From Marinobacter qingdaonensis (lineage in GTDB: Bacteria > Pseudomonadota > Gammaproteobacteria > Pseudomonadales > Oleiphilaceae), in NCBI RefSeq assembly GCF_034555935.1, contig NZ_JAYDCJ010000003.1, positions 1,674,001 through 1,738,000 on the forward strand: a stretch of DNA of 64,000 bases, written 5' to 3'. Below are positions 26,280-58,020 of this stretch, piece by piece. The first letter of the stretch is position 1. Every line of letters begins with the position of its first letter. The translations under genes and the position numbers were made by a program. The notes beneath the pieces are model-generated. The model was not told the DNA's origin. It worked only from the letters and a program-made list of their open reading frames with translations, and did not search any database.

Positions 26280-26387
26280 GGGCAGGTGGGCATGGCTTGC
26301 CAAAACCCGCTCAAGCACGTCCATGTGGCGCTTGAGCTCCGCCATCCATGGCTCCGCACAGTTTTGGCAAGCCATGCCCACCCGCCC
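26280..26387 (-). repeat. Twin-hairpin palindromic repeat, copy 1 (ANGGA sense on minus strand)
   Basis: 108 bp with a 27-bp terminal inverted repeat (one mismatch) made of GGGCATGGCTTGCCAAAAC-type arms. Between the arms, read on the minus strand, are two hairpins whose loops are ATGGAT (closed by GCC/GGC) and ATGGAC (closed by CAC/GTG), joined by CTCAAGC. It begins 22 bases after ybiT and ends 35 bases before the DUF1415 gene. Its core is almost identical to copy 2 in opposite orientation, but the outer arms differ. Confidence 0.9.
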
Positions 26388-26421
26388 ACTCTGAGCTCGG
26401 CGGGGGCATCACGACTAAGAG

Positions 26422-26994
26422 ATGACAATGATGGTTGAAGCTGAGGTTGCAAATGCGACTCGCAAGTGGGTTGAAGGCGTTGTCGTCGGCTACAACCTGT
26501 GTCCGTTCGCCAAGCGTGAGTTGCTGCATGACCGGGTGCGTTTCGTGGTAAGCGAGGCTACCGACGAGGATTCACTGTTGCAGTCACTGCACGCGGAGCT
26601 TCAGCGCCTCAACGATGAGCCGGAGATCGAAACCACGGTATTGATCCACCCGGGTGTATTGCAGGACTTCGCGGCCTACAATGAGTTCCTGGATGCGGCC
26701 GATGGTTTGCTCGCCTACCTGGAGCTGGATGGGATCTACCAGGTTGCCAGTTTCCATCCGGACTATCAGTTCGAGGGCACAGAGCCGGATGCGGCGGAGA
26801 ACTACACCAACCGTTCTCCTTACCCGATGCTGCACCTGTTGCGGGAAGCGAGTTTGGAAGCGGCTATCGACAGTCATCCGGACGTCGACGGCATACCCGG
26901 TCGCAACATCAAATTGATGGAAGAGCTGGGCGTCGAGCAGCTGCGCGACGTTCTCGCGAACTGCGTAAAGGAAACAAAGACTCCACGGGAGTGA
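26422..26994 (+). CDS. DUF1415 family protein
   Basis: 190-residue cytoplasmic protein of the DUF1415 family, recognised by WVEGVVVGYNLCPFAKREL, DGIYQVASFHPDYQFEGTEP and NYTNRSPYPMLHLLREASLE. The conserved Cys, His and Asp residues suggest an enzyme, but no activity is known to me. It lies between copies 1 and 2 of the palindromic repeat, which point away from it in their ANGGA sense. The ATG at 26422 and a second at 26428 are both possible starts. Confidence 0.85.
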   Translation: MTMMVEAEVANATRKWVEGVVVGYNLCPFAKRELLHDRVRFVVSEATDEDSLLQSLHAELQRLNDEPEIETTVLIHPGVLQDFAAYNEFLDAADGLLAYLELDGIYQVASFHPDYQFEGTEPDAAENYTNRSPYPMLHLLREASLEAAIDSHPDVDGIPGRNIKLMEELGVEQLRDVLANCVKETKTPRE

Positions 26995-27004
26995 GATGAC
27001 GAGT

Positions 27005-27106
27005 AGGTAGGGCTTCCTCTTCCAAAACTGTGCGGAGCCATGGATGGCGGAGCTCAAGCGTCACATGGATGTGCTTGAGCGGGTTTTGGAAGAGGAAGCC
27101 CTACCT
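27005..27106 (+). repeat. Twin-hairpin palindromic repeat, copy 2 (ANGGA sense on plus strand)
   Basis: 102 bp with perfect 24-bp terminal inverted repeats (AGGTAGGGCTTCCTCTTCC followed by AAAAC). The two internal hairpin loops are both ATGGAT, in CATGGATG contexts. The inner 66 bases match copy 1 with two changes, both transitions in or beside hairpin II, while the distal arms have changed at several paired positions and remain complementary. It lies 10 bases after DUF1415 and 46 bases before the methyltransferase-like gene, so it would be transcribed in ANGGA sense by readthrough. Confidence 0.92.
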
Positions 27107-27152
27107 GCGACCACTCAGATTTGCAGGCCAAGACCAAACAACGAGGCAAAAC

Positions 27153-27884
27153 TTGGGACTTCTCTTCGAACAAATAGACAGCCAACCGTCGGAAATCGGC
27201 GAGATCACCCTCCGGCGCCGGAAGATTCCGGCCATTGGTGATCGCGATATCTTCGAGGTAAAGCTCGGCGAAGAATTCCTGATGTCCAGCATGTTCGTGG
27301 ACGCCGAAGTGGCGCTGTCGGATCTGGGCCTCGAAGCCACCGAAGGCGATAACCTCAGTGTGGTGGTCGGTGGTCTGGGCCTGGGGTACACCGCCGTGGC
27401 GGCGCTCAAACACGAGCGGGTGGGCGAGCTGCTGATCGTGGAATACCTGGCGCCGGTCATCGGCTGGCACCAGCAGGAGCTGGTGCCTTTGGGCCAGGAC
27501 ATCAACGCCGACGCCCGCGCCCGCTACGTTCATGGCAGTTTCTTCGATCTGGCGGTAGCCGAACCCGGCGAGGGCGGTTTCGATCCCGAAGGCCCGGGCC
27601 GGACCTTCGACTGCATCCTGCTGGACATTGACCACTCACCACGGGCGCTGCTGCACGATTCCAACGCCAGTTTCTACACCACCGCCAACATCGGCAAGAT
27701 GGCCCAGCAGCTCAAGCCTCGGGGCGTCTTTGCCATGTGGTCGAACGAAGGCGAAGACGACCAGTTCATGGCGGTGCTCCGGAGCGTGTTTGTTGACGTA
27801 GATTGCCGTGTGGTCAAGTTTTTCAATCCATTCCAGAACAGGGAATCGTTCAACACCGTGTACATCGCCCGCAAGCCGGGCTGA
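27153..27884 (+). CDS. Spermidine-synthase-like methyltransferase-fold protein
   Basis: 243 residues with a Rossmann SAM-type fold: SVVVGGLGLGYTAVAALKHE (motif I), VEYLAPVIGWHQQEL, and FDCILLDIDHSPRALLHDSN, as in bacterial spermidine synthase-like proteins. The active-site aspartate pattern of genuine aminopropyltransferases (GGGDG) is not present, so polyamine synthesis is doubtful. The start is a TTG with GAGG seven bases upstream; the frame is open further upstream only through the palindromic repeat, which I exclude. The sirtuin gene begins 16 bases downstream and is probably co-transcribed. Confidence 0.8.
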   Translation: MGLLFEQIDSQPSEIGEITLRRRKIPAIGDRDIFEVKLGEEFLMSSMFVDAEVALSDLGLEATEGDNLSVVVGGLGLGYTAVAALKHERVGELLIVEYLAPVIGWHQQELVPLGQDINADARARYVHGSFFDLAVAEPGEGGFDPEGPGRTFDCILLDIDHSPRALLHDSNASFYTTANIGKMAQQLKPRGVFAMWSNEGEDDQFMAVLRSVFVDVDCRVVKFFNPFQNRESFNTVYIARKPG

Positions 27885-27900
27885 GTTATCCGGAGTACGT

Positions 27901-28803
27901 ATGCCCGCAAGCACCCATCGCACGCGCCCGTTCAGTAGCAGCCAGCGCCTGCCGGAGCCTGAGCAGGCGCCCATCGAGCATGAACCGGAGCAGGCCGGCG
28001 CGATGCTGGCGAACTTTATCCGCCAGAACCCCCGGTCGCTGATCCTGACCGGGGCCGGGGTCAGCACCGATTCCGGCATTCCCGATTACCGCGATGGCGA
28101 TGGCGCCTGGAAACGCAAGCAGCCGGTCCAGCATCAGGCGTTCATGGACAGCTTTGAAACCCGGCAACGCTATTGGGGCCGGAGCCTGATTGGCTGGCCG
28201 GTGATGCGCAATGCCCTGCCGAACCCGTCTCACCACCACATCGCCGATCTGGAACTGCTGAACCACAGCTCCCTGGTGGTCACCCAGAACGTGGATCGGT
28301 TGCACCAGAAAGCCGGCACACGGGCGGTGACCGACCTGCACGGGCGGGCCGACGAGGTCATCTGCATGAGCTGCAACTATCGCTGCCCGAGGGACGAGGT
28401 GCACGACCGCTGTGCCGATCTGAATCCCGGGTTTCGGCATTATCGGGCCGAGACCGCGCCCGATGGCGACGCGGACCTGGAGGTGGATTTCTCGGATTTC
28501 CGGCCGGCGGACTGCCCGAAATGTGACGGCATCCTGAAGCCCGACGTGGTGTTCTTCGGTGACTATGTGCCGAAGGACCGGGTCCACGCTGCCCTGGATG
28601 TGCTCAAGGCCAGTGACAGCCTGCTGGTGATCGGGTCGTCGCTGATGGTCTATTCCGGATTCCGGTTCTGTCGCTACGCCAAGGAGTGGGGTAAGCCCAT
28701 TGCCACCCTGAACCTTGGCCGCACCCGGGCCGAACCGCTTGCCGATCTCAAGCTGAATGCCCGCATCGGCGAGACCCTGGGGTCCGCCCTGGCCGCGCTC
28801 TAG
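27901..28803 (+). CDS. NAD-dependent protein deacetylase (sirtuin family)
   Basis: 300 residues. Sirtuin motifs in order: TGAGVSTDSGIPDYRDGDGA (NAD binding), TQNVDRLHQKAG, catalytic His in DLHGRADEV, a four-Cys zinc site (ICMSCNYRC region and CPKCDG) and VVFFGDYVPKDR. It would remove acyl groups from lysines using NAD. The GDYVP variant and long zinc module place it outside CobB proper, in the class II/SIRT4-like or bacterial SIR2-type group. It follows the methyltransferase-like gene. Confidence 0.9.
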   Translation: MPASTHRTRPFSSSQRLPEPEQAPIEHEPEQAGAMLANFIRQNPRSLILTGAGVSTDSGIPDYRDGDGAWKRKQPVQHQAFMDSFETRQRYWGRSLIGWPVMRNALPNPSHHHIADLELLNHSSLVVTQNVDRLHQKAGTRAVTDLHGRADEVICMSCNYRCPRDEVHDRCADLNPGFRHYRAETAPDGDADLEVDFSDFRPADCPKCDGILKPDVVFFGDYVPKDRVHAALDVLKASDSLLVIGSSLMVYSGFRFCRYAKEWGKPIATLNLGRTRAEPLADLKLNARIGETLGSALAAL

Positions 28804-28820
28804 CGTCACTTCCCCGAGGC

Positions 28821-28853
28821 AAAAAAAAGAGCCCACCAAACGGTGGGCTCTTT
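28821..28853. terminator. Bidirectional terminator between sirtuin and NSS genes
   Basis: AGAGCCCACC pairs with GGTGGGCTCT around AAAC. On the minus strand it is followed by eight Ts, an excellent terminator for any convergent leftward transcript, that is the NSS transporter; on the plus strand it is followed by TTTGCG. Confidence 0.92.
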
Positions 28854-28901
28854 GCGTTGGGCGAGGCCCGGTGGGTCCAAAGCCGGGCCGGCCCAGTGCG
28901 C

Positions 28902-30314
28902 TTACAGCAGGTTGTAGATGAACACCGCGGCCACGGCGACCGGGGTGAAGTAGCGGATGGTGGCGTACCACAACCGGAACATGGGCCCGGACAGCGCCAG
29001 TTCCTGCTCCACCGCTTCCCGGGACATGACCCAGCCGGCAAACACGGCCACCAGCAGGCCACCCAGGGGCAGCAGGATGTTGGCGGTGAAGAAGTCCAGC
29101 AGGTCGAAGATGGTCTTGCCCTCGAACATGCCGATCGCGCCCAGCGGGGCGAAATCCGACCACAGGTTCAGGGACAGGATCGAGGCAATGCCCAGGGCCC
29201 AGCAGACCACGCCGGCACCCAGGGTGCTGACGACACGGTTCATGCCCTTGCGCTCCTCCAGCCACTCGACGATCGGCTCCAGCAGGGAGATGCCCGAGGT
29301 CCAGGCGGCGAAAATCAGCAGCACGAAGAACAGGGTGCCGAACAGGCTGCCCATGGGCATCTGGCCGAAGGCCAGCGGCAGGGTCTGGAAGATCAGGCCG
29401 GGACCGGCGCCGGGCTCCAGGCCGTTGGCGAACACGATCGGGAAGATGGCCAGGCCGGCCAGCAGAGCGACCCCGGTATCGATTACCGATACGGTGATGG
29501 AAGTCTTGGCGATGGAGACGTTCTTCGGCAGGTAGGAGCCGTACGCCATCATGACCGCCATGCCCAGGCTCAGGGTAAAGAACGCGTGCCCGAGGGCGAC
29601 CAGGATGCCGGAGGTGGTGATCTTCGAGAAGTCCGGCTGGAACAGGAAGCTGACGGCGCGGCCGAATTCGCCGCTGGTCATGGCGTAGCCGACGGCAATC
29701 AGCAGCAGCACGAACAGGCCGGGCATGAGAATGCTCACCGCCCGCTCCAGGCCGGCGCGCACGCCCTTGGCGACCACCAGCATGACCAGGGCCATGAACA
29801 CGGTGTGCCACATCAGCAGGGTCAGGGGATCACTCAACAGGTCGGAGAAGATGGCGCCGATGGCCTCGGCGGACTGACCCACGAGGCCGCCGCTGGCCGC
29901 GGTACCCACGTAGGACACGGCCCAGCCACCGATCACGGAATAGAACGAGAGAATCAGGAAACCGGCCAGGACACCGACGGCGCCCACCAGTCGCCACGCC
30001 GGCGCCAGCCGATCCCGCTGGGCGATCAGGCGCAGACTGTTGACCGGGCTCTTGCCGCCCCGGCGGCCGATGAGCACTTCCGCCATCATGATCGGCAAGC
30101 CAACCGCGGCAATGCACACCAGGTACACCAGGACGAAGGCACCACCGCCGTTCTCACCGGTGATGTAGGGGAATTTCCAAATATTGCCCAGGCCCACCGC
30201 GGAACCGGTCGCGGCGAGGATAAACGCCAGGCGCGAGGACCAGAGCCCCCGGGTGGCGTTGGAACCTTCCAGCGCCTCGGCGTGGTTGGCGCTGGTCGAA
30301 GGTGATTCAGACAT
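28902..30314 (-). CDS. Neurotransmitter:sodium symporter (NSS) family transporter
   Basis: 470-residue inner-membrane Na+-coupled symporter with about 11-12 helices. The family signature LAFILAATGSAVGLGNIWKF is at residues about 30-49 and GENGGGAFVLVYL follows; both line the Na+ and substrate sites in LeuT-type proteins. Substrates are amino acids or amines. Its position 84 bases downstream of leucine dehydrogenase suggests import of a branched-chain or similar amino acid. AGGAG precedes the ATG. Confidence 0.93.
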   Translation of the reverse strand: MSESPSTSANHAEALEGSNATRGLWSSRLAFILAATGSAVGLGNIWKFPYITGENGGGAFVLVYLVCIAAVGLPIMMAEVLIGRRGGKSPVNSLRLIAQRDRLAPAWRLVGAVGVLAGFLILSFYSVIGGWAVSYVGTAASGGLVGQSAEAIGAIFSDLLSDPLTLLMWHTVFMALVMLVVAKGVRAGLERAVSILMPGLFVLLLIAVGYAMTSGEFGRAVSFLFQPDFSKITTSGILVALGHAFFTLSLGMAVMMAYGSYLPKNVSIAKTSITVSVIDTGVALLAGLAIFPIVFANGLEPGAGPGLIFQTLPLAFGQMPMGSLFGTLFFVLLIFAAWTSGISLLEPIVEWLEERKGMNRVVSTLGAGVVCWALGIASILSLNLWSDFAPLGAIGMFEGKTIFDLLDFFTANILLPLGGLLVAVFAGWVMSREAVEQELALSGPMFRLWYATIRYFTPVAVAAVFIYNLL

Positions 30315-30355
30315 AGCTGTCTCCTGCTTGGTACTTGTTGTTGTTGGGTGAAGCA

Positions 30356-30379
30356 GGGGCCGACGCCGGGTTCGGCCCC
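30356..30379 (-). terminator. Hairpin between leucine dehydrogenase and the NSS gene
   Basis: GGGGCCGA and TCGGCCCC pair around eight bases, 19 bases past the leucine dehydrogenase stop. No U tract follows, so it may only attenuate readthrough into the transporter gene. Confidence 0.4.
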
Positions 30380-30398
30380 GTAGAGATCGCTGCCAGGT

Positions 30399-31499
30399 TT
30401 ATCCAGCCCGCGCCAGGCGCTCGGTCGCGGTGTTCACCTTGGCAACGTGTTTGCGGAACCGTTCCTCCGCCAGCTCATTGGCGATGGCGCCAGTGGGCCG
30501 GCCGCTCCGGTCAGAACGGGTGAAGATTTCCTTGAGCGTGTCGCCGATGGCGTCCACATGTTCGCGAACGGTCTCGGGGGAGGCCCCGGTGCGCTCGTAG
30601 AACACGTCGATGATGCCGCCGGCGTTGATGGCGAAATCCGGTGCGTACAGGATGCCCCGATCCTTCAGGGCCTGATCGTGTTCCGGGTGCTCCAGCAGGT
30701 TGTTGGCGGCACCGGCCACGATCCCGGCTTTCAGTTTCGGGATGCTGGTGTCGTTCAGGACCGCGCCCATGGCACAGGGCGCCACCACGTCCACCGGCAG
30801 GGTCAGGATGTCCTCGGCGGTCGCCGGAGTCGCCCCCAGTTCGTCCACCGCCCGCTGCATGTTGTCGGCGAAGATGTCGTAGACCCAGAGCTGGGCCCCG
30901 GCTTCTTTCAGGTGCCGGGCCAGGCGGAAACCGACGTTGCCGATGCCCTGGATGGCGACTTTCAGGCCGTTCAGGTCATCCCGACCCAGCTTGTGCTGCA
31001 CCGCCGCCTTGAGTCCGATGAAGGTGCCGTAGGCGGTGGCCGGCGACGGGTCGCCGTTGCTGGGGTTGCCGTCGAAACCGATGCGCTCGGCAATGCCGGC
31101 GACGTGCTGGGTGCGTCGGCCCATCACGTGCAGATCCGGCACGCTGGTGCCGGAATCCTCGGCTGCGATGTACTGGCCGCCCAGGCCTTCCAGGTGCCGG
31201 CCCATGGCTTCCAGCAGCGCTTCGGTCTTGTCCTTGCGCGGATCGCCAATGATCACCGACTTGCCGCCGCCCAGGTCCAGATTGGCCAGGGCCGACTTGT
31301 AGGTCATGCCCTTGGACAGGCGCAGGACGTCGCGCAGGGCCTCTTCATCGGTGGCGTAGGGGAACATCCGGCAGCCGCCCAGGGCGGGGCCGCGGGAGGT
31401 GTTATGGATGGCAACGATGGCTTTCAGTCCGGTTTCCGGATCGCAGAAGAAGGACAGTTGTTCGTGGTTGTCGAACTCGGGATGGCTGAATACGTTCAT
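30399..31499 (-). CDS. ldh: Leucine dehydrogenase (Glu/Leu/Phe/Val dehydrogenase family)
   Basis: 366-residue NAD-dependent enzyme that reversibly deaminates branched-chain amino acids to 2-oxo acids. The catalytic Lys is in [20 protein letters not shown], the Asp in [12 protein letters not shown], and the nucleotide fold has [15 protein letters not shown]. Length and the [15 protein letters not shown] segment match leucine rather than glutamate dehydrogenases; phenylalanine or valine preference is not excluded. AGGTGAA lies upstream of the ATG. A promoter with an operator-like palindrome lies about 390 bases upstream. Confidence 0.9.
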
Positions 31500-32137
31500 G
31501 GCGTTTCACCTTTCTGGCTTTGGCGCCGCTACCCTTGTGAGGTCTGCGACTGCCGACTTTTGTTGTTAGACCGCGGCATGGGCGATTGGTTGATGCGACT
31601 GTGCGTGCGATTGGCGCGAGTGGGCCTCACCCGCTGGACGCGCTGGTCGTCAGCCGGTCTGGTTGCTGGAGCGGGAATGTCACGGTCGTGGGTCTGGCGT
31701 GCGCGGGGCGCAGCCGCCGGGAAAGGCGTGCAGGCTGTGGCATGTTGAAATCCTCTCCACCAGGCCGGATCTCGGCGTGCGTGGCAGTCTTGTTGTTGTC
31801 GCCCGGCTTTTGACCGGGGTGTCGATTTCAGGTGTCCGTTTCCAGTCGGAAGTGCCCTTGTGAGGCCGGACAAACCGTAAACTAGTGTCTTTTTACGTTA
31901 ACGTCAACGTGCAAAAGCTAATCAATTTCCCCCGTCGTCGCCGCAACCTCGCAAGGGCCTGTAGCTGCGGGAAAAAATTTTTCAGGGGGTGAGCGAGGTC
32001 GAAATAGACAAGGGTTATATTGCTCGCCCTGTTATTACAAATCAGTCCCAGCAGCCCGCCGGGGCGGCTTGGCAGCGGCGTTATAATCAGGAAGTAAAGC
32101 TGTGGTTGCCCGCTCCGAGTGAGCGAAGGAGGGGATC
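31500..32137. other. 638-bp non-coding region upstream of leucine dehydrogenase
   Basis: Apart from the promoter/operator near 31880-31907 I see no convincing gene. The open frames here have no ribosome site and show none of the codon bias of neighbours. If the leftward promoter is real, the leucine dehydrogenase mRNA has a leader of about 370 bases. The right part carries the upstream region of the gene at 32138, with an AT-rich patch around 31970-31985. Confidence 0.6.
31879..31907 (-). promoter_or_regulatory. Leftward sigma70-type promoter overlapped by a 16-bp palindrome (LiuR-like operator)
   Basis: On the minus strand TTGACG (-35) is followed by a 17-bp spacer and TAGTTT (-10). The palindrome TTGACGTTAACGTAAA (plus-strand 31892-31907) has arms TTNACGTT/AACGTNAA and covers the -35 and spacer, the position expected for a repressor or MerR-type regulator. 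It resembles operators of LiuR, the MerR-family regulator of branched-chain amino-acid catabolism in proteobacteria, as I recall them. The downstream gene being leucine dehydrogenase agrees. Confidence 0.55.
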
Positions 32138-32680
32138 ATGAAACGGCTTTTCTATTTGGTGAACACCATCGACAGCGTCGAGAGCATCTCCGAAGACCTG
32201 CATCGGGATGGGGTGTCCAACTGGCGATTCCACGTCATTAGCAAGGACGATGCCGGGCTGTACTCGCACCATATCCACACGGCGAGCGTGCTGGACCGGA
32301 CCGACCTGGCCCGATTCGTGGAGCGGGGGCTGATCATCGGCGGGCTGTTTGCCGCCTTCTTCATCCTGCCACTGGCGCTTTGGGGCGGACTGGAATGGCC
32401 GACCTCGGCCTTTGTCGCCATGGGCGTGTTTGCGGTGCTGGCGGGTGGCTGGCTCGGTGGTTTTGGCGGTATCGGCACCGAGAACTACCGGATTCGCCGG
32501 TTCCACAAGGATCTGGAGAATGGCAAATACCTGATCATGGTGGATGTACCCAAGGCGGAAGTGGAACGCGTTGAGGCCCTGATGGCCGGGTTACACCCGG
32601 AAGCCGCCCTGCGGGGCGAGAGCAGCAGCGTCAACAATCCCTTTGCCGCGGCGGATGGCCGGGTGCACATCATGCACTAG
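32138..32680 (+). CDS. Two-helix membrane protein of unknown function
   Basis: 180 residues: an N-terminal soluble part (MKRLFYLVNTIDSVESISED), two membrane helices (about 65-85 and 92-112, the latter Gly-rich), then a cytoplasmic C-terminal part with KYLIMVDVPKAEVERVEALM. The layout, a short ferredoxin-like half on each side of a helical hairpin, resembles stress-related YflT/GS17M-type proteins, but I cannot name a family. GAAGGAGGGG precedes the ATG. Confidence 0.75.
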   Translation: MKRLFYLVNTIDSVESISEDLHRDGVSNWRFHVISKDDAGLYSHHIHTASVLDRTDLARFVERGLIIGGLFAAFFILPLALWGGLEWPTSAFVAMGVFAVLAGGWLGGFGGIGTENYRIRRFHKDLENGKYLIMVDVPKAEVERVEALMAGLHPEAALRGESSSVNNPFAAADGRVHIMH

Positions 32681-32728
32681 GCCCGGGCTAGGCTCGGCGA
32701 CGGACTTCGGTATCTACCTATACGCGCT

Positions 32729-32755
32729 CAGGGGAAACTGCCTTAGCTTCCCCTG
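32729..32755 (+). promoter_or_regulatory. 27-bp interrupted palindrome abutting the azlC start codon
   Basis: CAGGGGAA and TTCCCCTG are exact inverted repeats around 11 bases, with a further CT/AG pair inside. The second arm ends at the base before the azlC ATG. The only Shine-Dalgarno-like sequence, AGGGGA, is in the first arm, so as RNA it would be sequestered; as DNA it could be an operator. Confidence 0.5.
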
Positions 32756-33490
32756 ATGTCCGTCGCTTCCTATCCTTACCAGATACAGCCCCACAAGGTC
32801 CGCCAGGAGTTTGTCCGGCTCTTTCCCATCTCCCTGTTCGTGGTGGCGTTTGGTGCTGCCTTCGGTTTGGCCGCGACCCAGAAAGGGCTGCTGCCGCTGG
32901 AAGCGCTGCTGATGAGCACCACGGTGTTTGCCGGTGCCTCCCAGTTTGCCGCGACAGACATGTGGGGCACCGAAGTGTCGGTGTTGCCGCTGATCGCGGT
33001 GGTGTTCGCCATCAACTCCCGTCATCTGCTGATGGGCGCCTCGCTGTACCCCATGCTGAAAGACCTGCCCCCCGGTAAACGCTATGGGCTGCTGCTGTTG
33101 CTCACCGACGCCAATTGGGCGGTTTCGGCGCAGGAGTACCAGAACGGCAAACGCAACCTGGAAGTGATCCTGGGCGGTGGCCTGGTGCTGTGGCTGGCGT
33201 GGCTGATTGGCACCTGGCTCGGGGTGTACTTTGGCGGGCTGCTGCAGAACCCCAAGAGCCTGGGGCTGGACATGGTCCTGGGCTGCTTCCTGTTGGCCAT
33301 GGCCCTGGGGGGTAAGAAGTCGCCACGGGTGCTGGTGGCCTGGGCCGTGGCCGCGGTTGCCTCGCTGGCGGCCTGGAAGTGGCTGCCGCCGCACACCCAC
33401 GTGGTGGTCGGGGCCCTGGCGGGTGGCGCCATCGGTTATTTCTGGTTGGAGCGGAAGCCGTCCGCGGTTGCCACGGAGGAGCCGTCATGA
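32756..33490 (+). CDS. azlC: AzlC family branched-chain amino acid exporter, large subunit
   Basis: 244-residue membrane protein with seven or so helices and AzlC family segments FVVAFGAAFGLAATQKGLLP, VFAGASQFAATDMW and FAINSRHLLMGASL. With AzlD it exports branched-chain amino acids (or related compounds) from the cytoplasm. No Shine-Dalgarno lies at normal distance from the ATG; instead a palindrome abuts it. The azlD gene overlaps by four bases. Confidence 0.88.
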   Translation: MSVASYPYQIQPHKVRQEFVRLFPISLFVVAFGAAFGLAATQKGLLPLEALLMSTTVFAGASQFAATDMWGTEVSVLPLIAVVFAINSRHLLMGASLYPMLKDLPPGKRYGLLLLLTDANWAVSAQEYQNGKRNLEVILGGGLVLWLAWLIGTWLGVYFGGLLQNPKSLGLDMVLGCFLLAMALGGKKSPRVLVAWAVAAVASLAAWKWLPPHTHVVVGALAGGAIGYFWLERKPSAVATEEPS

Positions 33491-33798
33491 CCATCGAAAC
33501 CTCTACCGCCGGAGTCCTGGCCCTGATCGGGATCATGGCCCTGGTCACCCTGGCGACCCGGTTTGGCGGTGTGTTCGTGATGTCTTACGTGCGCATCAGC
33601 CCCCGCATCGAGAGTTTCATCAACACCATGGCCAGTTCGGTGCTGATCGCCATTGTCGTGCCCATGGCCTTTGCCGGTGACGCCGGGGCCCTGGCCGCCC
33701 TGTCGGTGACCACCGTCACCATGCTGGCGCTGCGTAAACCCCTGCCGGCCATCGCCGCCGGTATTGCCGCCGCCGGTCTGGTGCGCTACCTGACCTGA
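33487..33798 (+). CDS. azlD: AzlD family branched-chain amino acid exporter, small subunit
   Basis: 103 residues with three or four membrane helices and the AzlD pattern IMALVTLATRFGGVFVMSYV and VLIAIVVPMAFA. The start overlaps the azlC stop as ATGA with GGAGGAGCC upstream, indicating translational coupling. Together with the leucine dehydrogenase and NSS genes it makes a branched-chain amino-acid neighbourhood. Confidence 0.87.
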   Translation: MTIETSTAGVLALIGIMALVTLATRFGGVFVMSYVRISPRIESFINTMASSVLIAIVVPMAFAGDAGALAALSVTTVTMLALRKPLPAIAAGIAAAGLVRYLT

Positions 33799-33815
33799 CC
33801 GCCGTCCTTGTCCAC

Positions 33816-34586
33816 CTATTCGGTGCTCTCTGGCATCGGGTTGGTGTTGCGCAGGGCCAGGTCGCCAATGCCCGGCAGCTTGATGCCCAGCGCGAGCGGG
33901 TTCACCCCCAGCGACAACCCCAGAATGTTCACTTCCAGACCTTCACGGACGCCCGCCAGCAAGCCGAAATAGCCCCCGAGCGACAGCTGGTAACCGGTGC
34001 CACCCGGTGCCTGTGCCACGAGGCTGTCGCCCAGGTAATCCTTGCCGATGGCGTTGCTGGGCAGGGCCACGTCCAGGCCCGGTACCTGCCGGATGATCCA
34101 GGCGATGAAGGTGTTGCTGTTGGGCCCGGGCCAGGCCTCGTATTCGGTCGGGTAGGGGTAGGCCGCCACGGCCTCGTAGATGTCCGGGATCAGGGCGGCG
34201 GCCTCTTCGCCGCGGATGTCGGCGTAGAGTTCCGGCCGGGCACCGTACCAGTGCCGGTCCGGTTCGCCCGGGCGGGAACTGACCACGTACCGACGCCAGC
34301 CAGTGACTTCGTGCACCTGGTAGTCACTGGCGCCCGCCTCCTTGGTGGCGATCCAGGTGTGCACCGCAAAATAGCCGCGCCAGCTCCAGGCCCGGGCGCC
34401 GTAGACCTGGACGATGGCGCCCTGGTACTGGTCCGGGCGCGGGGCGATGCCGGCGCTTGCCCGGCTGGCGGTGTGCCAGCTCTCGGCACCCTGGAGGCTG
34501 CTGCTGGTGGCCAGCAGCAGCGGTCCCGCCAACAGGCACAGGAGGGCGGCCATCAGCCAGGCACTGAATTTCAGAACGGATCGCAT
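33816..34586 (-). CDS. DUF3750 domain protein
   Basis: 256 residues, with a signal peptide or N-terminal anchor (SVLKFSAWLMAALLCLLAGP). The DUF3750 region contains YGARAWSWRGYFAVHTWIAT, WYGARPELYADIRG and WPGPNSNTFIAWIIRQVPGL. The conserved His, Asn and Ser residues suggest a periplasmic hydrolase or permuted papain-like fold, but no function is known. It converges with azlD at 17 bases distance. Confidence 0.82.
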   Translation of the reverse strand: MRSVLKFSAWLMAALLCLLAGPLLLATSSSLQGAESWHTASRASAGIAPRPDQYQGAIVQVYGARAWSWRGYFAVHTWIATKEAGASDYQVHEVTGWRRYVVSSRPGEPDRHWYGARPELYADIRGEEAAALIPDIYEAVAAYPYPTEYEAWPGPNSNTFIAWIIRQVPGLDVALPSNAIGKDYLGDSLVAQAPGGTGYQLSLGGYFGLLAGVREGLEVNILGLSLGVNPLALGIKLPGIGDLALRNTNPMPESTE

Positions 34587-35616: not shown

Positions 35617-35663
35617 CGAGGTCCATCCCCATGCGAAGTTTGCCTTGGCTCTCAGTATAGAAG

Positions 35664-46019: not shown

Positions 46020-46030
46020 TTGCTCACGGG

Positions 46031-49351: not shown

Positions 49352-50868
49352 TAGCCGTCCTCCCCGACCATGGGTGTGTTCAGGATGTTGAGATAGCCGT
49401 CCGGGTTCTGCAGCTGGGCGGCGGTGGCGTCGGTGTATTCGCTGATCGGGCCGGCCAGCACTACCATCACCACGCTGAGGGCAATCAGTGCCCCGGCGGC
49501 GGTGGAAACATTGCCACCGAGCGGCTTGGGCTCCTCGATGTGGCCATCGACCGTGCGCCAGAACACGATGCTGCCGGCGCGGCTGTAGGCAATCAGGGTG
49601 AAGAAGCCGCCAATCAGGATCACCGACCAGAGCCAGGCCATCTGGGGACCTGCCATGGCCGACTGCAGGATCAGCAACTTGGCGAAAAAGCCGCTCAGGG
49701 GCGGCAGCCCGGCCGCGGCTACGGCGCCCAGCAGGAACAGCACGCTCAGGAAGGTGCGGTTACGCATGCGCGGCGCAGTCACGATCTTGTCCTTGGCGCT
49801 GCCGCGCTGCTGGGCCACCATGTCGGCCACCAGGAACAGGCCGCCCACGGTCCAGGTGCTGCTGAGCAGGTAGAACAGCGCGGCGGAGATACCCGCGGTC
49901 GACCCCAGCGCGATGGGCGCCAGCAGAGTGCCGACCGAGATAATCACCTGCCAGGCCACCAGGGTTTTCAGATTGTCCGCGCCCAGGGCGCCGATCACGC
50001 CCATGGTCAGGGTGATCAGGGCCAGCGGGAACAGCCAGTCCATGCCCAGATTGGCCAGGGTGCCGGCGTCGTTGCCGAAGATCAGCATGAACACCCGCAG
50101 GATGGCGTAGACCCCAACCTTGGTCATGACCGCAAACAGCGCGGCCACCGGTGCCGTGGCCCGAGCGTAGGCCTTGGGCAGCCAGAAGCACAGGGGAATC
50201 AGCGCCGCCTTGAGGGCAAACACCACCAGCAGCATCATGCCGCCGGCCTTGACGATGCTCAGGTTCTCGCCGGTCACGGTCGGGATTTTCTGGGCCAGAT
50301 CGGCCATGTTCAGGGTGCCGGTCACGCTGTAAATCATCCCGACGGCAATCAGGAACACCGCCGAGCCGACCAGGTTCAGCACCACGTAATGCAGGCCCGG
50401 AACGGTGCGCGCGCGGCCGCCGCCGTGCATCAGCAGGCCGTACGAGGCAATCAGCAGGACCTCGAACGCGACGAACAGGTTGAACAGGTCGCCGGTCAGG
50501 AAGGCGATGTTCAGGCCCAGCAACTGGAACAGGAACAGGCTGTGGAACTGGCGGTTGCCCTCGTCGGTGCCGCCGATGGCGAAGAGGTGGCAAAACAGCG
50601 CCAGCACCGCGGTCAGCACCAGCATGAGCGCGGCCAGCCGGTCCAGGACGAGGACAATGCCGAACGGCGGTTGCCAGTTACCGAAGGCGTACAGGCGATA
50701 GGCGTCGTCGCTGGCCAGAACCAGCAGGACAATGGTGGACACCAGGGTCAGGACCGTGGTGGCAATGGCCAGGGTCCGGCGCAAGCTGATCGGGGCATAG
50801 CCCATAAAGACCTGGAGGATGCCGCCCAGCAGCGGGATCAGGATCGGTGCGGTAAGCCAGTGGTTCAT
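49351..50868 (-). CDS. mrpD: Mrp Na+/H+ antiporter subunit D
   Basis: 505-residue NuoN/M-like proton-translocating subunit with about 14 helices. The conserved FEVLLIASYGLLMHGGG carries the transmembrane Glu, and Lys-bearing helices include FALKAALIPLCFWLPKAYAR. It pairs with MrpA to couple proton entry to cation export. Start overlaps mrpC by four bases. Confidence 0.94.
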   Translation of the reverse strand: MNHWLTAPILIPLLGGILQVFMGYAPISLRRTLAIATTVLTLVSTIVLLVLASDDAYRLYAFGNWQPPFGIVLVLDRLAALMLVLTAVLALFCHLFAIGGTDEGNRQFHSLFLFQLLGLNIAFLTGDLFNLFVAFEVLLIASYGLLMHGGGRARTVPGLHYVVLNLVGSAVFLIAVGMIYSVTGTLNMADLAQKIPTVTGENLSIVKAGGMMLLVVFALKAALIPLCFWLPKAYARATAPVAALFAVMTKVGVYAILRVFMLIFGNDAGTLANLGMDWLFPLALITLTMGVIGALGADNLKTLVAWQVIISVGTLLAPIALGSTAGISAALFYLLSSTWTVGGLFLVADMVAQQRGSAKDKIVTAPRMRNRTFLSVLFLLGAVAAAGLPPLSGFFAKLLILQSAMAGPQMAWLWSVILIGGFFTLIAYSRAGSIVFWRTVDGHIEEPKPLGGNVSTAAGALIALSVVMVVLAGPISEYTDATAAQLQNPDGYLNILNTPMVGEDG

Positions 50869-51233
50869 CGACCGGTTTCCTCCTTGCGATGATCCAGGTG
50901 GGCGGTCCGGTCACCCTGGTGACCGTCGACGTGGTCGTCGTCATGGTCGGCCAGGCTGCGCAGGGCGAGCACCACCACGAACGCGGTCATGGCAAAGCCG
51001 ATCACGATGGCGGTCAGTACCAGAGCCTGGGGCAGCGGGTCGGTGTAGCTGTCCGCGCCGCTGATGATGGGCTGGGCGCCGGTGGCCAGCCGTCCGCTGG
51101 AGAACAGGAACAGGTTGACCCCGTAGGAAATCAGCGTTAGCCCGACCACCACCGGGAAGGTTCGCGCCCGCAGCAGCAGGTACACGCCGGAGGCGGTCAG
51201 GGCACCAATGACCAGAGCAAAGACAAGCTCCAT
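50865..51233 (-). CDS. mrpC: Mrp Na+/H+ antiporter subunit C
   Basis: 122-residue NuoK-like subunit with three helices (ALVIGALTASGVYLLLRART, LISYGVNLFLFSSGR, TAIVIGFAMTAFVVVLALRS). ATG shares one base with the mrpA stop (TAATG). The short tail is rich in Asp and His (DHDDDHVDGHQGD). Confidence 0.94.
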   Translation of the reverse strand: MELVFALVIGALTASGVYLLLRARTFPVVVGLTLISYGVNLFLFSSGRLATGAQPIISGADSYTDPLPQALVLTAIVIGFAMTAFVVVLALRSLADHDDDHVDGHQGDRTAHLDHRKEETGR

Positions 51234-54034
51234 TAGTTACCCTCCTTTGGGCTCTTGATGGCGGAGTGGGGAGACAGACGGCCAATGCTGACCAGGGCCA
51301 GGAGGGTGGCGCCAATCACGGTCAGGTACACGCCAAGGTCAAAGACCAGGGCCGAGGCCACCTCGAACTTGCCCACGATCGGCCAGGTGATGTAGCCGAA
51401 GGTGGAGGTCAGGAACGGGTAGCTGAAGGCCAGGCTGCCGGCGCCGGCAATCACCGCGAACAGCAGGCCGACCCCGAGCACGTTGTGGTACTTGAAGGGC
51501 ACCCGGTCCTGGGTCCAGATCATGCCGCTGGCCACGTACTGGAGAATCAGCGCGACGGAGGTGATCAGGCCGGCAATGAAGCCGCCACCGGGCAGATTGT
51601 GGCCGCGCAGGAAGATGAACACCGACACCATCAGCGCTAGCGGCAGCATCGGCCGGGCAATCAGGCGCAGCATCAGCGGATGGGCATCCCGGGTCCACTC
51701 GTGACCCTGGCCATCGCTGGGCGGCGGGGTCAGGGCGGTGTTCTTGAGCATGGCGTAGATACCCAGGGCGGCAATGGCCAGGACGGTGATCTCACCCAGG
51801 GTATCGAAGCCCCGGAAGTCCACCAGAATGACGTTGACCACGTTGGTGCCACCACCACCCGGTTTGCTGTTGTCCAGGAAGAAGTCGGAAATCGAGCTGA
51901 AGGGCTGGGTCAGCATGGCCAGGGTCACCAGGGTCATGCCCACACCGGCCACCAGGGCGATGACGATGTCCCGGATGCGCCGCGGTGTCGGTGTCTCCAC
52001 CGGGGTCCAGGACGGCATGTAGTAGAGCGCCAGCATCAGCAGCACGATGGTCACCACCTCCACCGACAGCTGGGTCATGGCCAGGTCGGGCGCCGAGAAC
52101 CGGGCAAAGGCCAGGGCCACCAGCAGGCCGACCACGCTCAGCAGCACCAGGGCGGTGAACCGGTCTCGATGGAAGAACGCGGTCAGGCCGGCGCACAGCA
52201 CCAGCACGCCAGCGCCCACCGCGGTGGCCGAATCCACCGGTGACAGGCCGATGTCACCGACAAACACCCCGAGATTCATCAGCGGGGCTGCGGCCACCGC
52301 CACCACGCTCAGTACCAGTAGCAGGCCGTAGCGTTGCAGGGAGCCGTTCTCAATCAGGCCGGTCAGACGATGGGCGACGGTTTCCACCTTCAGCACGATG
52401 GCTTCGAAGACCGCCTTTTCATCGATTTCCTTGAAGCGGGCGTGGAAATCGAAGAAGCGCTGGCGCTGGCTGTACATCAGCAGACCGCCGAAGAAGGCCA
52501 GGACACTCATCAGAAGGGGCAGGTTGAAGCCGTGGGCGATGGTCAGGTGGTACTCCGGAACCGCGCCGCCCAGGGTGGCCGAGGCCGCGGCGTACAGGAT
52601 CGGCCCGACCGACACCGCCGGGAAGACACCGACCATGATGCAGGCAAACACCAGGATTTCGACCGGGATCTTCATGTACCGCGGCGGTTCGTGGGGCGGA
52701 TAGACCGGCAGGTCCACCGGCTTGCCGTTGAAGAACACATCGTGAATAAAGCGGGCCGAGTAGGCCACGGCGAAGATGCCGGCCAGGGTCGCGACCAGCG
52801 GCGGCATCCAGGCCAGCAGCCCCGGCAGATTCAACTGCAGAGCTTCGGCAAAGAACATTTCCTTACTCAGGAAGCCGTTCAGCAGCGGCACCCCCGCCAT
52901 GGAGGCGGCGGCCACCATGGCTAGTGTGGCGGTGTGGGGCATGTAGCGCCAGAGCCCGTTGATCCGACGCATGTCCCGGGTGCCGGTCTCGTGGTCGATG
53001 ATCCCGGCGGCCATGAACAGCGAGGCCTTGAAGGTGGCGTGGTTGATGACGTGGAACACCGCGGCCACGGCCGCCAGTTCCGTACCCATGCCAAACAGCA
53101 GGGTAATCAGGCCCAGGTGACTGACCGTGGAGTGCGCCAGCAGGCCCTTGAGGTCGTGCTTGAACATGGCCACGTAAGCGCCCAGCAACAGCGTGGCCAT
53201 GCCGGTGAAACTGACCATGTAGAACCACTGCTCGGTACCGGCCAGAGCCGGGTACAGACGGGCCATCAGGAACACGCCGGCCTTGACCATGGTGGCCGAG
53301 TGCAGGTACGCCGACACCGGGGTCGGGGCCTGCATGGCGTGGGGCAGCCAGAAGTGGAACGGGAACTGGGCCGATTTGGTGAACGCGCCCAGCAGGATCA
53401 GGGTCAGCGCCACCGGGTACATGGCGTGGGCCTTGATCAGGTCGCCGGCGGCCAGGACGTCGTCGAGCTCATAGCTACCGACGATGTTGCCGAGGATCAG
53501 GATGCCGGCCAACAGGGCCAGGCCACCACCGCCGGTCACCGCCAGCGCCATCCGGGCCCCCCGGCGGGCGTCCTGCTTGTAGGTCCAGAAACTGATCAGC
53601 AGGAACGAGGTCAGACTGGTCAGCTCCCAGAAAATCATCATCAGAAGCAGGTTGCTGGACAGCACGATGCCGAGCATGGAGCCCTTGAAGCAGAGCAACA
53701 GGGCGTAGAATTTGCCGACATTCTCCTTCGCCTTCAGGTAATAGCGGGCGTACAGGATGATCAGCAGGCCGATGATCAGGATCAGCAGGGCAAACAGCAG
53801 GGACAGGCCGTCCAGGCGGAAGCTGAACGACAGGCCGAGGGCCGGCAGCCATTCGAAGCTGTGCAGGACCACGCCGCCGCTGGCGAGGGTCTCCCAATGG
53901 GGGAACAGCGCCGCCAGGGCGATCAGCGCCGGCACGGACGACGCGATGGCAATCGCCGTGCGTCCGCCCTGGGCGAACAGCGGCGCGGCTATGGCACCCA
54001 AAAACGGCAGTAGTACAACCAGCGGTAGCGACAT
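51233..54034 (-). CDS. mrpA: Mrp Na+/H+ antiporter subunit A fused to subunit B
   Basis: 933-residue membrane protein. The N-terminal 600 or so residues are NuoL-like, with the conserved FWELTSLTSFLLISFWTYKQ, Lys-bearing FPFHFWLPHAMQAPTPVSAY and HATFKASLFMAAGIIDHETG. Residues about 620-760 hold the MrpA C-terminal region and residues about 790-930 an MnhB domain (RPMLPLALMVSVFIFLRGHN, PGGGFIAGLI). No separate mrpB exists, so this is the fused AB form of group 2 operons. The complex exports Na+ (or other cations) for proton entry. GAGG precedes the ATG. Confidence 0.94.
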   Translation of the reverse strand: MSLPLVVLLPFLGAIAAPLFAQGGRTAIAIASSVPALIALAALFPHWETLASGGVVLHSFEWLPALGLSFSFRLDGLSLLFALLILIIGLLIILYARYYLKAKENVGKFYALLLCFKGSMLGIVLSSNLLLMMIFWELTSLTSFLLISFWTYKQDARRGARMALAVTGGGGLALLAGILILGNIVGSYELDDVLAAGDLIKAHAMYPVALTLILLGAFTKSAQFPFHFWLPHAMQAPTPVSAYLHSATMVKAGVFLMARLYPALAGTEQWFYMVSFTGMATLLLGAYVAMFKHDLKGLLAHSTVSHLGLITLLFGMGTELAAVAAVFHVINHATFKASLFMAAGIIDHETGTRDMRRINGLWRYMPHTATLAMVAAASMAGVPLLNGFLSKEMFFAEALQLNLPGLLAWMPPLVATLAGIFAVAYSARFIHDVFFNGKPVDLPVYPPHEPPRYMKIPVEILVFACIMVGVFPAVSVGPILYAAASATLGGAVPEYHLTIAHGFNLPLLMSVLAFFGGLLMYSQRQRFFDFHARFKEIDEKAVFEAIVLKVETVAHRLTGLIENGSLQRYGLLLVLSVVAVAAAPLMNLGVFVGDIGLSPVDSATAVGAGVLVLCAGLTAFFHRDRFTALVLLSVVGLLVALAFARFSAPDLAMTQLSVEVVTIVLLMLALYYMPSWTPVETPTPRRIRDIVIALVAGVGMTLVTLAMLTQPFSSISDFFLDNSKPGGGGTNVVNVILVDFRGFDTLGEITVLAIAALGIYAMLKNTALTPPPSDGQGHEWTRDAHPLMLRLIARPMLPLALMVSVFIFLRGHNLPGGGFIAGLITSVALILQYVASGMIWTQDRVPFKYHNVLGVGLLFAVIAGAGSLAFSYPFLTSTFGYITWPIVGKFEVASALVFDLGVYLTVIGATLLALVSIGRLSPHSAIKSPKEGN

Positions 54035-56444
<2,410 letters not shown>

Positions 56445-56508
56445 GGTGTAAAAAAGGTCGTCGCCTGGCCCTAAAATGACCAGTTTCTGACGCTCTGCGT
56501 CAGTCTGG

Positions 56509-56673
56509 TCACCGGATGGATTTCAGGGCATTGGAGATGGCCTCGGCCTCCGCTTCAAGGACCTGGCTGCGCAGGCTGCTGCCCTGCTGGAGCGCCTGCG
56601 CCAGCTGTTTCTGCTTCATGTCGTAGAGCCGGCTGAGAATATCGGCTTGGCTTTGTCTGATCGGTGCGTTCAT
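56509..56673 (-). CDS. Small helical protein of unknown function (54 aa)
   Basis: 54 residues, MNAPIRQSQADILSRLYDMK followed by QKQLAQALQQGSSLRSQVLE, predicted as one long amphipathic helix rich in Gln, Ala and Leu. GGGGAGG five bases before the ATG is an excellent ribosome site, better than for the upstream in-frame ATG. It sits between fadH and the GlxA-type regulator. No family known to me. Confidence 0.6.
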   Translation of the reverse strand: MNAPIRQSQADILSRLYDMKQKQLAQALQQGSSLRSQVLEAEAEAISNALKSIR

Positions 56674-56779
56674 GGCTACCTCCCCACTCATAACACCCTG
56701 TCAACTTCTTTTACGAAGAGCGGCAAATTTTGGCCCTTCCTGTTATTAAGATGCATATCGCAGGCCATGTGTTACAGGG

Positions 56780-57760
56780 CTATCGGCCGAATCGCGAACG
56801 ATAGGCACCGGGTGCCAGACCGGTGTGTTTTCGGAACAGCCGACTGAACGAACTGATGTCCTCGTAGCCGACGGCATTGATGATTTCGTCAATCGGCCGA
56901 CGGGATGTCTCCAAATGATGACGGACGTGCTCCACCCGCAGCAGTTGCAGGTAGGTGTTCGGGGTATCGCCCGTGGCCGCCTTGAACCGGCGCAGCAGCG
57001 ACCGCTCGCTCAACCCGGACTGCCGCGCCAGCTCCGCCAGCAGAATCGGTTTGGCGAAGTGACGGTCGAGCCAGTCCTGCAGGTTCAGCACTGTCTCATC
57101 CGAGTGGTAGCGCTTGACCTGCAGTGCGCTGTAGGGCGCCTGGCTGGTTCGCCCGGCATCGATCACAAAGGCCTTGGCCAGTTGCCGCGCCGTCTCCGCC
57201 CCGGCAAACCGCTCCACCAGGTACACTCCCAGATCCCACCAGGCCATACCACCGCCGGCACAGGCCAGGGCGCCATCCACCGTGATCAGTTTTTCCGGGT
57301 GGCAGGAAACGGCCGGGTAGCGCTGGCGAAACTGATTGCTGAACCCCCAGTGGGTGGTGGCCTCCCGGCCATCGAGCAAACCGGCTTCGGCGAGCAGGAA
57401 GGCACCGGTGCAGTTGCTGGCGATCAGCGAACCGGACGATGCCTGCTCCGACAACCACTGCACCAGGCTCCGGTTCTGTGCCAGGACATCGCCTATGGGG
57501 GCGCCAATGGTGGGCACCACGATGATATCGGCCCGGGCCAGTTCAGGGGCGCCCCAGCGGCCATCGGCCATCAGGGTCAGGCCATTGATGCAGCGACAGG
57601 GCCCGCCATCCTCGGTCAGCAGCTGGGTCCGGAACCGGGGTTCTGGCGCCTCGCCGTGGATGCGCGCCCAGGTCACCCCGGCCAGGCGGAACAGATCGAC
57701 AATCCCGGTGATGGCGCTGGCCAGGGCGCCGTCGAAGCCGATGATGGAAACCGTGTGCAT
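56780..57760 (-). CDS. GlxA-family (DJ-1/PfpI plus AraC) transcriptional regulator
   Basis: 326 residues: an N-terminal DJ-1/PfpI-like domain (SIIGFDGALASAITGIVDLF, GSLIASNCTGAFLLAEAGLL with the nucleophile-elbow-type Cys) and a C-terminal AraC DNA-binding domain (about 225-325, LAELARQSGLSERSLLRRFK, EDISSFSRLFRKHTGLAPGA). Such regulators often respond to quaternary amines or related metabolites. The ligand and target here are unknown. GGGAG precedes the ATG. It is divergent from the acyl-CoA dehydrogenase across the repeat-filled gap. Confidence 0.88.
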   Translation of the reverse strand: MHTVSIIGFDGALASAITGIVDLFRLAGVTWARIHGEAPEPRFRTQLLTEDGGPCRCINGLTLMADGRWGAPELARADIIVVPTIGAPIGDVLAQNRSLVQWLSEQASSGSLIASNCTGAFLLAEAGLLDGREATTHWGFSNQFRQRYPAVSCHPEKLITVDGALACAGGGMAWWDLGVYLVERFAGAETARQLAKAFVIDAGRTSQAPYSALQVKRYHSDETVLNLQDWLDRHFAKPILLAELARQSGLSERSLLRRFKAATGDTPNTYLQLLRVEHVRHHLETSRRPIDEIINAVGYEDISSFSRLFRKHTGLAPGAYRSRFGR

Positions 57761-57786
57761 GGATTACTCCCGGACTAGGCTGCCGC

Positions 57787-57880
57787 AGCGAGTGGCGCTC
57801 CCGGGACTGTCGGCAGCAGGGATGCTGCCGTCAAGCCCACAGGGATGTGGTCAATGCGTGTCCCGGGAGCGCCACTCGCT
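57787..57880 (+). repeat. Twin-hairpin palindromic repeat, copy 3 (ANGGA sense on plus strand)
   Basis: 94 bp with perfect 21-bp terminal inverted repeats (AGCGAGTGGCGCTCCCGGGA plus C). Inside are hairpin I, CGGCAGC-AGGGAT-GCTGCCG, the linker TCAAGC, and hairpin II, CCAC-AGGGAT-GTGG. Both loops are AGGGAT. Hairpin II gives ACAGGGATGT, which equals the CsrA high-affinity consensus core ACARGGAUGU. It begins 27 bases upstream of the GlxA-type gene start, in the divergent promoter region. Confidence 0.93.
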
Positions 57881-57918
57881 GGGGCGGCCGGGCGGACGAC
57901 CGCAGTTCCCGAGAGGTC

Positions 57919-58020
57919 GATACCAGGCGGCACTGTCCGGGACACGCTGTGAATACGTCCATGTACGCTTGGGTGCGGCATCCTTGCCGCACACAGTCCC
58001 GGACAGTACCGCCTGATATC
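57919..58020 (-). repeat. Twin-hairpin palindromic repeat, copy 4 (ANGGA sense on minus strand)
   Basis: 102 bp with 25-bp terminal inverted repeats broken only at two positions that become G-U wobbles in the ANGGA-sense RNA. On the minus strand hairpin I is GTGCGGC-AAGGAT-GCCGCAC and hairpin II has loop ATGGAC in TACATGGACGTA; the linker is CCAAGC. It is inverted relative to copy 3, 38 bases away, and shares GTCCGGGAC/GTCCCGGAC stem sequence with it only partly. Confidence 0.92.

What the first reader, a model, noticed from the sequence alone, without database searches (positions are those of the whole stretch)
26280..58020. Dispersed twin-hairpin palindromes whose eight loops all match the CsrA/RsmA motif
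Four copies (26280-26387, 27005-27106, 57787-57880, 57919-58020) share one plan: outer inverted repeat, ACTGT, hairpin I, a CAAGC linker, hairpin II, a GCG-type spacer, outer repeat. The loops in ANGGA sense are ATGGAT, ATGGAC (copy 1), ATGGAT, ATGGAT (2), AGGGAT, AGGGAT (3), AAGGAT, ATGGAC (4): all ANGGAY closed by C-G, that is CANGGANG, the known CsrA/RsmA recognition element in a hexaloop. Two sites about 30 bases apart suit a CsrA dimer. Seen in sequence: architecture and loops. Known: CsrA prefers ANGGA in hairpin loops. Inference: the repeats are bivalent CsrA targets or titrating sponges carried in mRNAs. The repeat family may already be catalogued as an intergenic repeat; I am not aware of a CsrA interpretation.
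Basis: partly seen in the sequence, partly recalled or inferred. Interest (0 to 1): 0.88.

Follow-up and report, generated by a model that had tools for sequence, protein, structure and literature searches.

The report
Scattered twin-hairpin CsrA-binding RNA repeats
This marine bacterium carries about fifty scattered copies of a small palindromic element whose one strand folds into two loops shaped to grip the global regulator CsrA, and the way the copies change shows that this folded strand is what selection protects; the RNA family and the CsrA idea were already in print.

Summary
Confirmed: four palindromic copies with eight ANGGA loops, as stated. The genome, by inference a Marinobacter, has about fifty such places (46 inspected). 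The best copies match Rfam TwoAYGGAY (RF01731, clan of RsmV) just below its cut-off (at most 41.7 against 43 bits). CsrA sequestration by TwoAYGGAY was proposed in 2014 (PMC4333381), so the core idea is not new. Added here: (1) loop 1 is ANGGA in 177 of 177 and loop 2 in 173 of 177 distinct Marinobacter copies. (2) Over 25 orthologs of copy 1, 21 of 27 arm pairs show two-sided change. (3) Arm mismatches on the ANGGA strand are G.T 119, A.C 6, also where that strand is antisense to both genes (24:2); so that single strand is what is folded and selected. (4) 48 of 177 cores lie within one mismatch of the CsrA SELEX consensus; 0 of 20,000 window 54-mers do. (5) Orientation to genes is random (50 sense, 46 antisense), so 'carried in mRNAs' fails as stated. 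(6) Copy 4 is a lineage-specific gain. Best reading: a high-copy, orientation-free TwoAYGGAY variant acting as dispersed CsrA-dimer decoys. Transcription, binding and titration are untested.

The parts
26280..26387 (-). Copy 1: outer arms 27 bp, two hairpins; same place and orientation in 25 of 30 compared loci of the genus, antisense to both flanking genes
26344..26349 (-). Copy 1 loop 1, ATGGAT
   Evidence: sequence
26319..26324 (-). Copy 1 loop 2, ATGGAC
   Evidence: sequence
27005..27106 (+). Copy 2: outer arms 24 bp, two hairpins, just after the stop codon of the DUF1415 gene
27040..27045 (+). Copy 2 loop 1, ATGGAT
   Evidence: sequence
27065..27070 (+). Copy 2 loop 2, ATGGAT
   Evidence: sequence
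57778..57889 (+). Copy 3: arms to 30 bp with mismatches, two hairpins; an element at the same place in 7 of 8 aligned relatives
57818..57823 (+). Copy 3 loop 1, AGGGAT
   Evidence: sequence
57841..57846 (+). Copy 3 loop 2, AGGGAT
   Evidence: sequence
57918..58021 (-). Copy 4: arms 26 bp, two hairpins; absent from the 8 aligned relatives, a lineage-specific gain
57980..57985 (-). Copy 4 loop 1, AAGGAT
   Evidence: sequence
57957..57962 (-). Copy 4 loop 2, ATGGAC, within GTACATGGACGT
   Evidence: sequence

Best explanation
Each copy is a single-strand structured element, most likely RNA. The ANGGA strand folds into a long closing stem (about 20-31 bp) that ends in a three-way junction and presents two short hairpins whose loops, ANGGAN closed by C-G and 23-25 nt apart, each fill one site of a CsrA dimer. 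About fifty copies lie on both strands of the chromosome and together act as a dispersed set of CsrA decoys; any transcript that reads the ANGGA strand adds one dimer's worth of binding. Shown here: architecture, copy number, loop conservation, and selection on folding of the ANGGA strand. Inferred: that the strand acts as RNA, that CsrA is the ligand, and that titration rather than local control is the effect.
For: Loop 1 ANGGA 177 of 177 and loop 2 173 of 177 in Marinobacter; 21 of 31 and 31 of 31 in G027/G029, the ten exceptions keeping GGA. In 35 of the elements, chosen for diversity over three families, the nine invariant columns are one G of the loop 1 GGA, the linker AG, the C-A that opens loop 2, the loop 2 GGA and one G of the final GCG. 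Orthologs of copy 1: arms 98.5% paired, 21 of 27 pairs with two-sided change; whole-structure covariation score 0.397 against 0.111 shuffled. Arm mismatches G.T 119, A.C 6, with the same sign in each gene context. SELEX consensus RUACARGGAUGU within one mismatch in 48 of 177 Marinobacter cores, 0 of 20,000 window 54-mers (consensus read in a passage of PMC7652899). Hairpin II loop flanked AC/GT in 151 of 173. CsrA in 36 of 36 genomes, once in this one. RF01731 similarity.
Against: No sigma-70-like enrichment upstream on the ANGGA strand; the highest score was on the other strand of the 3' flank. No convincing Gac box. So no transcript source is shown. Orientation to genes is random. A single-stranded DNA hairpin would also prefer G.T to A.C. 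The hairpin II hexaloop is the minimum-energy fold in only 1 of 4 window copies. In G027/G029 no core of 31 comes within one mismatch of the SELEX consensus and AC/GT flanks occur in 2 of 31. The linker AG and final GCG are not explained by CsrA. G012, G011 and G016 keep only 3, 11 and 12 matches, and CsrA is present in genomes without any match, so a large set is dispensable.
Confidence: 0.6

Rival explanations
1. Local regulators: each copy binds CsrA on its own transcript, sense or antisense, and alters stability or termination of neighbouring messages; there is no meaningful titration.
For: Copies lie close to stop codons (the nearest predicted gene end is a stop in 117 of 169); site 1 is kept in one orientation in 25 of 25 intact orthologs; the 3' flank is A-rich and T-poor whatever the gene strand, which could be a Rho-type tail.
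Against: No orientation preference (50:46); the core is inverted between relatives at 2 of 4 sites of one region, which a cis-acting signal should not tolerate.
Confidence: 0.25
2. Selfish mobile palindromes that move as single-stranded DNA; the loops are recognised by a transposase, and the CsrA resemblance is coincidental or parasitic.
For: Copy 4 is a lineage-specific gain with its arms; close pairs are 5'-to-5' in 27 of 28 rows, like ends of a unit; cores are nearly identical across non-orthologous sites and species; the wobble bias is on one strand.
Against: A transposase has no evident reason to keep ANGGA with free second and sixth positions in two loops and to match the CsrA SELEX consensus in Marinobacter. 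Most sites compared across species are shared and old. No exact match of the hairpin I core in viral contigs. No transposase was searched for.
Confidence: 0.12
3. DNA-level palindromes (cruciform or templated palindrome correction) with no single-strand role.
For: Arms are nearly perfect and change on both sides at once, with few wobble pairs in the inner part; both strands fold stably.
Against: G.T 119 against A.C 6: a double-stranded or templated process has no strand preference, and the bias follows the element, not the genes.
Confidence: 0.03

Closest known systems
TwoAYGGAY RNA, Rfam RF01731 (clan CL00106)
   Same: Long outer stem, two hairpins with AYGGAY-type loops, CAAG linker (alignment); CsrA sequestration proposed and a poorly conserved outer stem and tandem G-A in one stem noted in PMC4333381 (passages); here hairpin I has a GGA/GGA internal loop in most Marinobacter copies.
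   Different: Own copies reach at most 41.7 bits against a gathering score of 43; 13 matches at E <= 0.01 in this genome out of about fifty places, 8 of 17 copies listed, copies 3 and 4 not listed. About fifty dispersed copies in either orientation to genes; loop position 2 is any base. Rfam types it cis-regulatory.
CsrB/CsrC, RsmX/Y/Z sponge RNAs
   Same: GGA hairpins that bind CsrA dimers.
   Different: Those are one to a few dedicated sRNAs with many sites each (recalled; three Aln1 RNAs in Alteromonas, passages of PMC5864184). Here many loci hold two sites each and no promoter was found.
REP/REPIN/BIME and MITE-like palindromic repeats (recalled)
   Same: Dispersed, intergenic, palindromic, high copy.
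   Different: Asymmetric two-hairpin core and strand-specific wobble tolerance; arms share only about the inner 11 nt in Marinobacter and differ further out.

Membership tests
TwoAYGGAY RF01731 | Covariance-model score at or above gathering (43 bits) | tested here: not met
   Own copies at most 41.7 bits; copies in five other genomes of the genus reach 43.1-49.8 bits, 7 of 38 genomes pass in all
TwoAYGGAY RF01731 | Two hairpins with A[CU]GGA[CU]-type loops inside an outer stem | tested here: met
   Architecture in 45 of 46 places; loops
CsrB/Rsm sponge RNAs | Several CsrA-type GGA hairpin loops | tested here: met
   Two per copy
CsrB/Rsm sponge RNAs | Own promoter (Gac-box controlled in many species, recalled) and transcript | tested here: inconclusive
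   No sigma-70 enrichment; TGTAAGN6CTTACA with up to 1 mismatch at one place, fewer than its reversed control; transcription not testable
CsrB/Rsm sponge RNAs | Binds and sequesters CsrA | not testable with these tools
   needs a binding assay
REPIN/RAYT repeats | Dedicated RAYT transposase and symmetric REP doublet | not tested
   No search for a RAYT gene was made; the core is asymmetric

The most novel reading that the evidence does not exclude
A bacterial genome spreads its CsrA sponge over about fifty chromosomal loci, each a one-dimer decoy on either strand, slowly gained by insertion and lost by deletion. CsrA buffering capacity would then be an evolving copy number rather than the output of a few Gac-controlled sRNAs. 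The model finds this repeat class in 42 of 109 genera sampled in the order.
Probability: 0.35. Interest if true: 0.8.

Novelty: new variant of a known kind. Interest (0 to 1): 0.62.

Why it matters
TwoAYGGAY has been an orphan family with a short published CsrA hypothesis. A genus with about fifty copies in many of its genomes and as a rule one csrA gene makes that hypothesis directly testable. The strand-specific wobble count is a simple sequence-only test of whether a palindromic repeat acts as a single strand, and it could be applied to other orphan repeats.

Tried and rejected
DNA palindrome correction as the cause of arm covariation: rejected by G.T against A.C. Sense-oriented 5'-UTR or 3'-UTR element: rejected by 50:46 orientation. 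Autonomous sRNA genes with sigma-70 promoters: no enrichment over shuffles, and no conserved upstream motif beyond what looks like an outward extension of the arms. Insertion into pre-existing palindromes: at the one clean gain (copy 4) the aligned relatives show no palindrome by eye. Apparent empty sites such as G041 at L016:2035 and L067 at site 2 read by eye as deletion remnants. Viral origin: 0 viral contigs with the exact hairpin I pattern; nothing looser was searched. Rfam hits Ysr224 and mir-283 at copy 4 are far below their gathering scores. Pattern hits in six Planctomycete or delta-proteobacterial MAG contigs have no R1 match: chance or other sequence. Not searched: RsmY/RsmZ/CsrB genome-wide, RAYT transposases. 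Literature searches. No title or abstract start in those listings, several of them capped, describes these repeats in Marinobacter; only open-licence papers are held and only passages of six papers were read.

Selection and dropped rows. L037:2007-2052 (degenerate) was left out of the 45-copy alignment and the model. The 208-element set keeps inverted repeats with inner 45-66 nt that carry a loop motif and an [AG]AGC-like linker, identical ones removed; 6 of 224 inverted repeats were dropped. Five have no ANGGA; the sixth is, by the filter's rule, the copy in L217, whose linker reads AAGAC and whose end reads GTCG, with ANGGA-type loops. So the linker invariance is partly my filter: with L217 the linker C and the final GC vary together. 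The named set was fetched by a pattern that contains loop 1, so its loop 1 figure is biased; the own set was found by BLAST with whole copies (45 of 45 loop 1, 42 of 45 loop 2). A5 holds 35 of the 208 elements, chosen by me. On A5 my hairpin I pairs are met in only 56.0% of cells (outer stem 91.1%, hairpin II 98.1%), partly because the alignment ignores structure and the GGA/GGA loop was drawn as paired. In one search one drawn pair (columns 61-74) never pairs and is my error. R1 was run on 80 of 119 named loci; the inverted-repeat scan used all 119. Copy 4 was aligned in 8 of 19 relatives fetched; nine of the 19 show one element there, ten none, no relative two.
Full report
Observation. In the ANGGA sense each is 5' arm, YGT, hairpin I, RAGC linker, hairpin II, GCG[T/G], 3' arm; over the own copies the inner part is 51-58 nt. 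All eight loops are ANGGAN closed by C-G. Copies 1 and 4 are on the minus strand, 2 and 3 on the plus strand.

How many. BLAST with copy 1 gave 43 matches in the genome in which the window lies (3.985 Mb); copies 3 and 4 added a few. I fetched 30 stretches around them. Of 46 places examined, 45 have the full plan and one is degenerate. A further copy turned up in L036, so 46 were inspected with arms. Three more places come from the covariance search and one from the Rfam search and were not inspected: about fifty in all. The model R1 itself reports 60 matches at E <= 0.001 and may count some places on both strands.

What family. At Rfam gathering thresholds the window has no hit. With relaxed thresholds 8 of 17 own copies scanned match RF01731 TwoAYGGAY at 35.4-41.7 bits, two of the further copies scanned at 34.8 and 36.3; the cut-off is 43. 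In the genome-wide search this genome has 13 matches at E <= 0.01, and 26 of 38 relatives match, 7 of 38 above the cut-off, 0 of 14 controls. Rfam puts the family in clan CL00106 with RsmV. PMC4333381 (passages read) proposed from loop motifs that TwoAYGGAY sequesters CsrA. PMC2864571 lists the motif in human gut, gamma-Proteobacteria and Clostridiales (table row seen). So kind and hypothesis are known; because the curated threshold is not met in this genome I do not file these copies as formal members.

Loops against stems. In 208 distinct elements (177 Marinobacter; 31 from G027 and G029, other families of the order) loop 1 is ANGGA in 177 of 177 and 21 of 31, and loop 2 in 173 of 177 and 31 of 31; the ten loop 1 exceptions keep GGA, and of the four loop 2 exceptions three keep GGA. 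The second and sixth loop positions vary. The named part of this set was found by a pattern holding loop 1; the own copies alone give 45 of 45 and 42 of 45. In a cross-family alignment of 35 chosen elements the nine invariant columns are one G of the loop 1 GGA, the linker AG, the C-A that opens loop 2, its GGA, and one G of the final GCG; the other two bases of the loop 1 GGA are at 90% or more. One copy that my linker filter left out (L217) changes the linker C and the final GC together. The outer stem and hairpin II change with compensation on this alignment (91.1% and 98.1% of cells paired); hairpin I is only 56.0% paired under the structure I drew. Hairpin II has AC/GT at the loop base in 151 of 173 scored Marinobacter copies, but in 2 of 31 of G027/G029, where CC/GG prevails. 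48 of 177 Marinobacter cores are within one mismatch of RUACARGGAUGU, against 0 of 31 in G027/G029, 0 of 20,000 random 54-mers of the window and 0 of 208 antisense cores. The SELEX text (ACA and GGA fully conserved, mostly six-base loops, mostly four or fewer contiguous pairs) was read in a passage of PMC7652899.

Which strand. In the arms of the 208 elements 5552 pairs are Watson-Crick, 119 are G.T, 6 are A.C and 64 are other mismatches. G.T is a wobble pair in the ANGGA strand; A.C would be one in the other strand. The bias holds for copies sense to both genes (30:1), antisense to both (24:2), between convergent (25:1) and divergent genes (20:0), at contig edges (6:0) and in G027/G029 (14:2); most G.T pairs lie 19-24 nt from the core. 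It therefore follows the element, not gene transcription. The repeat finder scored both mismatches alike. This says that the ANGGA single strand is folded and selected. RNA is the simplest reading; single-stranded DNA is not excluded by this test alone.

One site through the genus. The place of copy 1 was compared in 30 loci (this genome and 29 relatives; one search covered 61 genomes and gave loci for the 30 best matches). An intact copy was found in 25 of 30, always in the same orientation, antisense to ABC-F and DUF1415. The other five are three copies with a nested insert, one partly deleted core and one remnant. Across the 25, arms are 98.5% paired and 21 of 27 pairs show two-sided change; the score for the whole structure is 0.397 against 0.111 +/- 0.010 shuffled and at most 0.062 when slid. 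At this site the hairpin I pairs hardly vary and so say little.

Gain, loss, inversion. Copy 4 is missing from the 8 relatives I aligned, while 7 of them keep an element at the place of copy 3; their shorter spacer shows no palindrome by eye, so the arms probably arrived with the element. No relative of the 19 fetched has two elements there. Losses leave part of an arm. In the L016 region, compared in this genome, G057, G068 and partly G041, the core is inverted between species at two of four sites, one of them a decayed copy in this genome read by eye.

Context. Of 177 Marinobacter copies none lies in a gene predicted by my codon-usage caller, which is unverified; co-directional neighbours give 50 sense and 46 antisense, convergent 47, divergent 26, and 8 lie at locus edges. 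The 3' flank is A-rich and T-poor for either gene strand. Close pairs (gap under 150 bp) are 5'-to-5' in 27 of 28 rows, 22 distinct loci against one, some perhaps orthologous; the exception is copies 3 and 4, made by the recent gain. No promoter explains this.

Distribution. R1 at E <= 1e-6 finds matches in 89 of 245 genomes and 42 of 109 genera of the order, with at most 17 candidates scored per genome. With 150 candidates scored, matches at E <= 0.001 number 60, 53, 54 and 47 in four Marinobacter, 12, 11 and 3 in three others, and 0, 25 and 32 in three genomes of other families. CsrA is encoded in 36 of 36 genomes, once in this one, and also where no copy was found.

Conclusion. Shown: a high-copy, both-strand, old yet still changing family of single-strand folds that present two CsrA-type loops. 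Inferred: RNA, CsrA binding and titration. The linker AG, the final GCG and the 5'-to-5' pairs remain unexplained.

Noticed in passing
L046, L059, L064 (site 1); L051, L056 (site 2): A nested, hairpin-rich insert of roughly 80-85 nt (by eye) interrupts the loop of hairpin II, at different sites in different species; own L037:2007-2052 may be a similar interrupted copy.
   Followed up: partly
L031:1135-1217, L080:2258-2349, L094:7662-7751: A second palindromic repeat with similar G-rich arms but another core of about 45 nt without ANGGA loops.
   Followed up: no
L009, L010, L015, L020, L022 and the other loci: Close pairs of copies nearly always face 5'-to-5' with unrelated spacers of 11-127 bp; members of a pair sometimes share hairpin types.
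   Followed up: partly
3' flanks of Marinobacter copies, up to 100 nt within the intergenic space: A-rich, T-poor tail on the ANGGA strand whatever the gene direction, possibly a Rho-type region.
   Followed up: partly
L013:2372-2658 and 6371-6785: Rfam matches above gathering scores to 5_ureB_sRNA and the cspA thermoregulator.
   Followed up: no
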